NCBI RefSeq assembly: GCF_004118975.1
Contig: NZ_CP035376.1
Span: forward strand, 310,001-374,000
DNA: 64,000 nucleotides
DNA from: Luteimonas sp. YGD11-2
GTDB taxonomy: Bacteria > Pseudomonadota > Gammaproteobacteria > Xanthomonadales > Xanthomonadaceae
Reading direction: 5' to 3'
Part shown: positions 55,951 through 59,299 of the stretch, in pieces
How the letters are laid out: each line of letters opens with the position of its first letter
Position numbering within the stretch: the first letter of the stretch is position 1
Notes under the pieces: model-generated
Databases searched by the model: none
Told to the model about the DNA's origin: nothing
The model's input: only the letters and a program-made list of their open reading frames with translations
Translations under genes and position numbers: made by a program

Positions 55951-57831
<1,881 letters not shown>

Positions 57832-58976: not shown

Positions 58977-59299
58977 GGGCCTATAGCTCAACGGTTAGAG
59001 CAGAGGACTCATCGAAAGGTGACCCCGGCATCGGAAGGGCCGGCGGAAAAACGGGATGAATTCAGGGAAACCGCAGCGGCGGCCGCATTGGCCGGACGGT
59101 GGCAATCCTGAGCCAAGCCGGCGGTACACCGCCGGAAGGTGCAGAGACTACCTGGGGGCTGCAGTGCCCTTGATGACAGGCTAGAGCGTCCCGCACCCCA
59201 CCAGCGCAGGCTGCGGGTGATGAGATAGTCCGCGCCGGGCGGAAACGCCCGGGAAAGCGAATCCTTTGGTTCCAGGTTCGAATCCTGGTGGGCCCACCA
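58977..59299 (+). tRNA. ileX: tRNA with CAU anticodon, probably tRNA-Ile2, split by a group I intron
   Basis: Exons 58977-59012 (nucleotides 1-36) and 59260-59299 (37-76, CCA encoded) join into a full cloverleaf. The acceptor stem is GGGCCTA/TGGGCCC, D-stem GCTC/GAGC, anticodon stem GAGGA/TCCTT with loop CTCATAA, T-stem CCAGG/CCTGG with TTCGAAT, discriminator A73. The anticodon is CAU. Pairs C4-G69 and C5-G68 are those reported to let TilS distinguish tRNA-Ile2 from elongator tRNA-Met. With lysidine at C34 it would read AUA. The intron sits between 36 and 37, so the tRNA needs splicing before it can act. The assignment as Ile and not Met is strong but inferred. Confidence 0.9.
59013..59259 (+). 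ncRNA. Group I self-splicing intron (IC3-like, 247 nt) in the anticodon loop
   Basis: Begins after U36 and ends in the expected 3' terminal G (59259). P1 forms between exon UCAU and intron GUGA (59019-59022), with the diagnostic U-G pair at the 5' splice site. P4 is TCAGG (59062-59066) with CCTGA (59107-59111). A strong P6a-type hairpin is CCGGCGGT/ACCGCCGG (59118-59135). The conserved R element GTGCAGAGACTA (59139-59150) pairs through ACTA (P7) with TAGT of the S element GATAGTCC (59225-59232). P9 is CCGGGCG-GAAA-CGCCCGG (59235-59252). These elements match those recalled from the Azoarcus tRNA-Ile intron. No homing endonuclease frame is present. Confidence 0.92.

What the first reader, a model, noticed from the sequence alone, without database searches (positions are those of the whole stretch)
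59013..59259. Group I intron splitting a CAU tRNA at position 36/37
Two tRNA halves separated by 247 nt fold into a perfect 76-nt tRNA. The insert carries P1 with a U-G splice-site pair, P4, P6a, R/S elements pairing as P7, a GAAA-capped P9 and a terminal G. Azoarcus has a related intron at the same site of tRNA-Ile(CAU). A copy in what looks like a gammaproteobacterial xanthomonad suggests either ancient retention or transfer. Because tRNA-Ile2 is normally the sole reader of AUA, its supply would depend on ribozyme splicing. It has no homing endonuclease, so how it spreads is open.
Basis: partly seen in the sequence, partly recalled or inferred. Interest (0 to 1): 0.93.

Follow-up and report, generated by a model that had tools for sequence, protein, structure and literature searches.

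The report
Self-splicing intron in an essential tRNA
The only gene for one transfer RNA in this bacterium is cut in two by a small RNA that should remove itself, and related bacteria appear to have gained, lost and swapped that insert many times at exactly the same spot.

Summary
Confirmed. Window 59013-59259 is a 247-nt group I intron (RF00028, 58.5 bits, cut-off 50) between positions 36 and 37 of tRNA-Ile2(CAU). The joined exons fold as a tRNA and equal, over 73 nt, the uninterrupted gene beside rpoD in Luteimonas marina. In the complete genome the only other CAU tRNAs are two Met tRNAs; TilS is present. No endonuclease was found.

It is not rare: 40 of 395 family genomes have it, all 40 at this site. 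In the genus the gene is split in 12 and intact in 39 of 52 genomes. On an rpoD tree presence changes at least 13-16 times, and two intron types are scattered over hosts against the rpoD and gyrB trees. Transfer and loss, with some vertical descent, fit best.

Its P7.1/P7.2 domain is absent from the tRNA-Leu/Arg introns compared, and its core groups with phage introns. Group I introns in tRNA-Ile2 were already reported (PMC8450103): a new member of a known kind, with unusually fast turnover. Splicing itself is untested.

The parts
58977..59012 (+). tRNA-Ile2(CAU) 5' exon (positions 1-36, ends with anticodon CAU)
   Evidence: joined exons give a 76-nt CAU tRNA; same letters as the uninterrupted L. 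marina tRNA
59013..59259 (+). group I intron, 247 nt, ends with G
   Evidence: RF00028 58.5 bits; 247-nt insert against intact orthologues
59260..59299 (+). tRNA-Ile2 3' exon (positions 37-76, CCA encoded)
59009..59022 (+). P1: U33-C34-A35-U36 with guide G59019-U-G-A59022; U36.G59019 at the splice site; C59013-G59018 closes a GAAA loop
   Evidence: sequence; C-G, A-U, U-G and the closing C-G pair kept in 25 of 25; the U33-A59022 pair is not general
59023..59046 (+). P2 hairpin
   Evidence: helix 3: 8 of 8 pairs with changes on both sides
59052..59058 (+). P3 5' strand (pairs with 59187-59193)
   Evidence: helix 4: paired in all 25 but never varies
59062..59067 (+). P4 5' strand (pairs with 59106-59111)
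   Evidence: helix 5, almost invariant
59118..59135 (+). P6a hairpin
   Evidence: helix 9: 4 of 7 pairs with changes on both sides
59146..59150 (+). P7 5' strand GACUA (pairs with UAGUC 59226-59230; guanosine site)
   Evidence: alignment; helix 10, paired in all 25 but never varies
59151..59180 (+). P7.1/P7.2 extra domain (CCUG/CAGG enclosing GGGC/GCCC)
   Evidence: P7.2: helix 11, 2 of 7 pairs with changes on both sides; P7.1 strands invariant; domain absent from the tRNA-Leu and tRNA-Arg introns printed
59194..59219 (+). P8
   Evidence: helices 12 and 13
59235..59252 (+). P9 hairpin with GAAA loop
   Evidence: helix 15: 5 of 7 pairs with changes on both sides
55951..57831 (+). rpoD, upstream neighbour of tRNA-Ile2 in many relatives
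   Evidence: 80 named loci kept, 60-86% RpoD identity; linkage

Best explanation
This is a working group I ribozyme that interrupts the only tRNA-Ile2(CAU) gene. After transcription the guide G-U-G pairs with the anticodon CAU (U.G at the junction), an external guanosine bound in P7 cuts after U36, the freed 3' OH attacks after G59259, and the exons join; TilS then modifies C34 so that AUA can be read (mechanism from general knowledge of group I introns and TilS). The element has no endonuclease. It persists because demand for the tRNA is tiny and because the exact site is re-colonised from other bacteria as well as lost; two intron types have replaced or re-entered the site several times in this family. 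Shown: anatomy, sole copy, conservation, patchiness, conflict of trees. Inferred: splicing in the cell, the reason for persistence, the vehicle and chemistry of transfer.
For: RF00028 full-length hit. Covariation above every shuffle (0 of 500) with splice-site U-G in 25 of 25. Sole tRNA-Ile2 with TilS present. In the genus 39 intact, 12 split, 1 neither, of 52, and none with both among the matches listed. Of 59 intron-bearing genomes only G083 (230 contigs, 4% contamination) also shows an intact copy, the search scoring at most 12 candidates a genome. Joined exons equal intact orthologues at the same rpoD-linked locus. AUA is rare: 4 of 16,621 codons in 38 window ORFs picked by GC3 bias. Turnover: 16 changes (13 forced by starred branches) on 72 rpoD rows, 0 of 500 shuffles as low (mean 23.3). 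Transfer: intron clade A is rejected as a host clade by rpoD (p-AU 2e-6) and by gyrB for 27 of 30 genomes asked; the intron data reject the rpoD topology (lnL 305 lower). L301 and L343, of two families, share 94.4% of the intron but 74.5% of rpoD, each intron lying on the contig of its rpoD.
Against: No splicing data exist here. Intron and rpoD identities still correlate (r 0.50), so part of the history is vertical, and on gyrB the window groups with two other clade A hosts. The intron alignment is short (245 columns, 9 of 39 inner branches starred). Flanks of 35 nt upstream and 30 nt downstream do not follow the intron once host distance is removed, so no donor tract was found. Clade A was named after seeing the intron tree, which the AU test does not allow for.
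Confidence: 0.85

Rival explanations
1. Strict vertical inheritance of one ancient intron with many independent losses, no transfer.
For: Same site in 40 of 40 intron-bearing family genomes; intron and rpoD identity correlate, r 0.50; losses alone could give the patchy pattern, since change counts cannot tell gain from loss.
Against: rpoD and gyrB both reject clade A as a host clade, and the intron data reject the rpoD topology. Both types occur inside one supported host clade of 7 rows of one genus code (SH-aLRT 99).
Confidence: 0.1
2. The intron rides on integrative elements that use tRNA-Ile2 as attachment site and carry the 3' part of the interrupted tRNA.
For: Three viral contigs start inside a tRNA-Ile2 intron and have a tyrosine-recombinase integrase gene just behind the tRNA (Pfam match for the L374 one). 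Integrase relatives lie behind tRNA-Ile2 in some intron-bearing (L147, L153, L176, L396) and some intact loci (L058, L076, L281). A downstream match was seen in only 6 of 35 close pairs, 3 pairs having no downstream sequence.
Against: In 59 intron-bearing genomes (at most 12 candidates scored in each) no second copy of intron 3' end plus exon 2 was seen, except 127 nt at a contig start of G373 identical to the end of the contig holding the gene, most likely an assembly overlap. Integrases also sit behind intact genes.
Confidence: 0.12
3. Spread by reverse splicing of free intron RNA into tRNA, then reverse transcription and recombination.
For: Relatives sit at the same 36/37 position of other tRNAs with U36: Thr(UGU) in L196, L198, L201, L204 and Lys(CUU) in L207; the Thr guides contain GCAA, matching UUGU (tRNA type and pairing read by eye). 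Flanks do not travel with the intron.
Against: The 28:42 exon pair follows the intron type (A: 12 of 12 A-U; B: 26 of 30 G-C), which insertion into resident exons would not give unless the pair matters for splicing. No intermediate is visible in sequence.
Confidence: 0.3
4. Dead copy: a tRNA pseudogene with a degenerate intron.
For: None found beyond the lack of expression data.
Against: Exons letter-identical to intact orthologues, invariant core, no other tRNA-Ile2 in a complete genome, TilS kept.
Confidence: 0.02

Closest known systems
Azoarcus pre-tRNA-Ile group I intron (IC3)
   Same: Small self-splicing intron in a pre-tRNA-Ile (titles of cited papers seen, which also give IC3); the CAU anticodon, the 36/37 site and the lack of an endonuclease are recalled.
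   Different: As I recall its sequence, it has no P7.1/P7.2 domain; the window intron has one.
Group I introns in tRNA-Ile2 of Acidovorax and Burkholderia species
   Different: Other hosts; their insertion position and intron subtype were not in the passage and could not be compared here.
tRNA-Leu(UAA) and tRNA-Arg group I introns of bacteria
   Same: Bacterial tRNA group I introns (PMC4033280 and PMC4853749, passages, the latter for Beggiatoaceae); examples here L043, L186, L230.
   Different: No P7.1/P7.2 in the four printed (L043, L186, L188, L230); separated from the Ile2/Thr/Lys/phage rows by a 100/97 branch in a core tree with long rows.
Phage group I introns, such as those in Synechococcus phage S-SRM01 and viral contig L377
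   Same: Core with P7.1/P7.2; the L377 core is 84% identical to the window core and the best by score of 17 non-Ile2 rows.
   Different: Not in tRNA-Ile2; S-SRM01 has an annotated homing endonuclease nearby.

Membership tests
Group I catalytic intron (RF00028) | Matches the covariance model above the curated cut-off | tested here: met
   58.5 bits against 50, model positions 1-253 of 253
[quoted passage not shown]
   UG in 25 of 25 (columns 38-50)
Group I catalytic intron (RF00028) | Core helices P3, P4, P6, P7, P8 and a final G | tested here: met
   P3 and P7 pair in all 25 but never vary, so they add no covariation
Group I catalytic intron (RF00028) | GTP-dependent self-splicing | not testable with these tools
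   needs transcription in vitro
Azoarcus-type IC3 tRNA intron | Insertion at 36/37 of tRNA-Ile(CAU) | tested here: met
   the Azoarcus site is recalled
Azoarcus-type IC3 tRNA intron | No P7.1/P7.2 between P7 and P3 | tested here: not met
Homing (endonuclease-bearing) group I intron | Endonuclease ORF in the intron | tested here: not met
   247 nt; the two antisense ORFs of at least 80 aa over it match no Pfam family at E 0.01
Attachment site carried by an integrative element | Second copy of intron end plus exon 2 in the genome | tested here: not met
   1 match in G000; none convincing in 59 genomes, at most 12 candidates scored in each

The most novel reading that the evidence does not exclude
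A lineage of group I introns shared by phages and gammaproteobacteria that has specialised in the anticodon loop: its guide reads the anticodon itself, so it lives in tRNAs ending in U36, and it hops between species and now and then between tRNAs (Ile2, Thr, Lys) without any endonuclease, using rarely needed tRNA-Ile2 as its main refuge.
Probability: 0.35. Interest if true: 0.75.

Novelty: new member of a known kind. Interest (0 to 1): 0.55.

Why it matters
A cell that cannot make its only AUA-reading tRNA without a ribozyme is a natural test of how a parasite RNA becomes indispensable. The mix of intact and interrupted alleles among close relatives at one syntenic locus makes gain, loss and cost directly measurable. 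It also gives a tractable case for a long-standing question, how group I introns without endonucleases spread, and warns that genomes annotated as lacking tRNA-Ile2 may simply hide it.

Tried and rejected
Dead-copy idea: rejected. Intron on plasmids: no match in 72,556 records. Phages: 8 records matched; 2 (one phage, two accessions) match 98 nt of the core, 6 match only exon 1. IMG/VR: the interrupted-junction pattern used gave 0 contigs, one core pattern 0, another 2, the first 11. Element-borne attachment copies: looked for in 59 genomes, not found.

Co-transfer of flanks: partial correlation with intron identity given rpoD was -0.09 (35 nt upstream, p 0.94), -0.02 (30 nt downstream, p 0.60) and 0.08 for all exon letters (p 0.19) over 40 of 42 rows; -0.03 for one D-loop letter (p 0.53) against 0.44 (p 0.0002) for the 28:42 pair over 42 rows. 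Independent host pairs, type against the 28:42 pair: 5 pairs, 4-5 the same way, none the other, median p 0.06, so not significant on its own.

Rows dropped before the counts: of 161 loci 20 had no rpoD and 38 no tRNA-Ile2 in reach; then three duplicates (L307, L336, L352), two with stops in RpoD (L319, L322), three with partial rpoD (L317, L312, L293), and 23 of the remaining 95 with RpoD identity at or under 66%. Searches read gyrB in wrong frames for some rows and are void; one search replaces them. G012, G232 and G373 had no full gyrB match. The core tree used 76 of 103 cores; L155 and L165 were missed by the anchor, and three cores (L032, L204, L372) were cut short.

A first pattern for interrupted tRNAs had wrong spacing and found nothing, replaced; an anchor-free core extraction failed for most rows, replaced. 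L032 was missed by the pattern and read by eye.

Full report
Observation. The window lies in a complete 3,216,429-base genome (G000) whose RpoD is closest, among the 80 named loci kept, to Luteimonas aestuarii at 86%. Between the exons 58977-59012 and 59260-59299 stand 247 bases. Rfam calls them a group I intron at 58.5 bits, above the cut-off of 50, covering the whole model. Joined, the exons give a 76-base CAU tRNA; unjoined, the default tRNA scan finds nothing in the whole window, and the intron-aware scan finds the gene with a 247-base intron but a misplaced boundary. ARAGORN labels the joined tRNA Met because it names it by anticodon. A counterpart lies in 5,140 of 5,426 E. coli genomes and is annotated tRNA-Ile in the three records listed (77.6% identity in the best, seen in its context; that E. 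coli reads AUA with it is recalled).

Anatomy. Read from the sequence and from 25 interrupted genes: P1 pairs U33-C34-A35-U36 with G59019-U-G-A59022, with U.G at the splice site; C59013-G59018 closes a GAAA loop. P2, P6a, P7.2, P8 and P9 are supported by changes on both sides; P1, P3, P7 and P7.1 do not vary among Ile2 introns and so are neither helped nor harmed by covariation. Over 78 pairs, 97.9% of cells pair, 29 pairs change on both sides, and each of the five measures beats all 500 shuffles; the structure was derived from these sequences, which favours it over the slid control. Between P7 and P3 there is an extra domain, P7.1 with P7.2 inside. The single-strand energy is 2.8 standard deviations better than shuffles, weak evidence alone.

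Sole copy. The genome has 47 uninterrupted tRNA matches. ARAGORN on the fetched loci gives 45 distinct genes, two of them doubled; the only CAU ones are an elongator-like and an initiator-like Met (isotype by their sequences, my judgement), and none has anticodon UAU. In the genus search of 52 genomes, 39 hold an uninterrupted tRNA-Ile2, 12 a split one and 1 (89% complete) neither; none holds both among the matches listed, the list being cut at weak matches. Among 59 intron-bearing genomes, only G083, with 230 contigs and 4% contamination, also has an intact copy; at most 12 candidates a genome were scored. TilS, the enzyme that makes this tRNA read AUA, is present above cut-off. AUA is very rare in the window: 4 of 16,621 codons in 38 ORFs chosen by codon-position GC, a choice that itself disfavours AT-rich codons. 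So the cell needs little of the tRNA, but some, and it must come through splicing.

Distribution. With Rfam's model, 40 of 395 family genomes have a group I intron, one each, and all 40 are at tRNA-Ile2 36/37. In the order draw, 29 of 299 have a match; 21 of those are at this site (20 by pattern, L032 by eye); of the other eight, five are in tRNA-Leu(UAA), one in tmRNA, one in another tRNA, and one (L189) looks like tmRNA itself rather than an intron (by eye). In the class draw, 56 of 369 have a match and 24 of these, the window included, are at this site. These searches used strict filters and so are lower bounds. Named carriers include Luteimonas aestuarii B9, Lysobacter daejeonensis GH1-9 and Dyella mobilis DHON07. 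The 40 family introns are 234-287 bases long and the 23 class ones 232-280, too short for an endonuclease; the two antisense ORFs over the window's intron match no Pfam family.

Turnover and transfer. tRNA-Ile2 lies downstream of rpoD in many of these bacteria, with or without the intron, so one locus can be compared. On an rpoD tree of 72 rows (42 with, 30 without) presence changes at least 16 times, 13 of them forced by starred branches; no shuffle of 500 was as low as 16, so there is clustering too. The window's nearest row, L350, 97% identical in rpoD, is empty. L291 and L353 are alike on both sides and differ by the 245-base intron, about 48 bases of promoter region and one tRNA letter. 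Among the 42 introns a supported group of 12 (97/98), clade A with the window, stands against the rest, called B. rpoD rejects A as a host clade (p-AU 2e-6); the intron data reject the rpoD topology (lnL 305 lower), the 7-row host clade of one genus (p 0.004) and window plus L298 (p 8e-5). gyrB, over 300 kb away in G000, rejects A as a host clade too and needs 4 changes where 1 would do, for 27 of 30 genomes asked. Against this, gyrB places the window with two other A hosts, both types are clustered on hosts, and intron and rpoD identity correlate at 0.50: descent and transfer are mixed. Clade A was named after seeing the intron tree.

What travels. The anticodon-stem pair 28:42 follows the intron type: A-U in 12 of 12 A genes, G-C in 26 of 30 B genes (A-U in 4), A-U in 24 of 30 empty genes, partial correlation 0.44, p 0.0002. 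Letters farther out and the flanks do not follow it. This fits either a very short exchanged tract or a functional match between the intron and that pair; I cannot separate them.

Wider family. Introns with the same core sit at 36/37 of tRNA-Thr(UGU) in L196, L198, L201 and L204 and of tRNA-Lys(CUU) in L207 (read by eye). The Thr guides contain GCAA, matching UUGU; the Lys guide GUGAG still fits CUCAU and has one mismatch to CUCUU. All these tRNAs end their anticodon in U36. Eleven IMG/VR contigs hold a 19-base core of this type; three (L373, L374, L378) start inside a tRNA-Ile2 intron beside an integrase gene, and the other eight show no tRNA-Ile2 exon in the stretch I read. The core in contig L377 is 84% identical to the window's. 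In a core tree of 76 of 103 rows the Ile2, Thr, Lys and phage rows are separated from the tRNA-Leu and tRNA-Arg rows by a 100/97 branch, but several rows are long or cut short and most inner branches are weak. The tRNA-Leu and tRNA-Arg introns printed lack P7.1/P7.2. I therefore think it likely, not shown, that two lineages of group I intron share this site.

Literature. [quoted passage not shown] passages of PMC4033280 and PMC4853749 (putative group I introns in tRNA-Arg and tRNA-Leu of Beggiatoaceae); section 11 and passages of PMC3984707; passages of PMC11835236. The searches, for group I introns with tRNA, xanthomonads, gammaproteobacteria, Luteimonas and related words, listed no other paper that I recognised from title and abstract start as describing this intron; I did not read the other listed papers, and most subscription papers are not held.

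Verdict. The finding is real and correctly placed. It is a new member of a known kind. Its interest lies in the fast turnover of an endonuclease-free intron in an indispensable gene, and in the link to phage introns; the mode of transfer stays open.

Noticed in passing
L377 9185-11250 (IMG/VR contig): Five group I introns above cut-off within about 2 kb of one viral contig, apparently in a capsid-type gene (gene read by eye only); one core is 84% identical to the window's intron.
   Followed up: partly
L381 9587-9887 (minus strand), 146,793-bp viral contig: Group I intron splitting what looks by eye like a tRNA-Leu gene on a viral contig; a 2014 review (PMC3984707, section 11) stated that all phage introns observed by then lay in protein genes.
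   Followed up: partly
L379 5907-6534 (minus strand) and L192 1501-1785: Group I introns inside tmRNA genes: on a viral contig (tmRNA and intron both matched by Rfam) and in a same-order genome (tmRNA end read by eye).
   Followed up: partly
L196, L198, L201, L204, L207: Group I introns at 36/37 of tRNA-Thr(UGU) and tRNA-Lys(CUU), same core as in tRNA-Ile2.
   Followed up: partly
L043, L186, L188, L190, L193: Group I introns in tRNA-Leu(UAA), read by eye, in genomes of the window's order.
   Followed up: partly
L391 1125-1225 (G603): A lone 101-base fragment of the intron core, 86% identical, about 70 kb from the interrupted tRNA on the same contig; looks like a relic.
   Followed up: no
L373, L374, L378, L396, L153, L176, L076, L058, L281: tRNA-Ile2, interrupted or intact, has integrase genes directly downstream in several genomes and viral contigs.
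   Followed up: partly
G005:C22:14748-14786: A 39-base copy of tRNA-Ile2 letters 32-70, 95% identical, in a genome that also has the intact gene; could be an attachment-site remnant.
   Followed up: no
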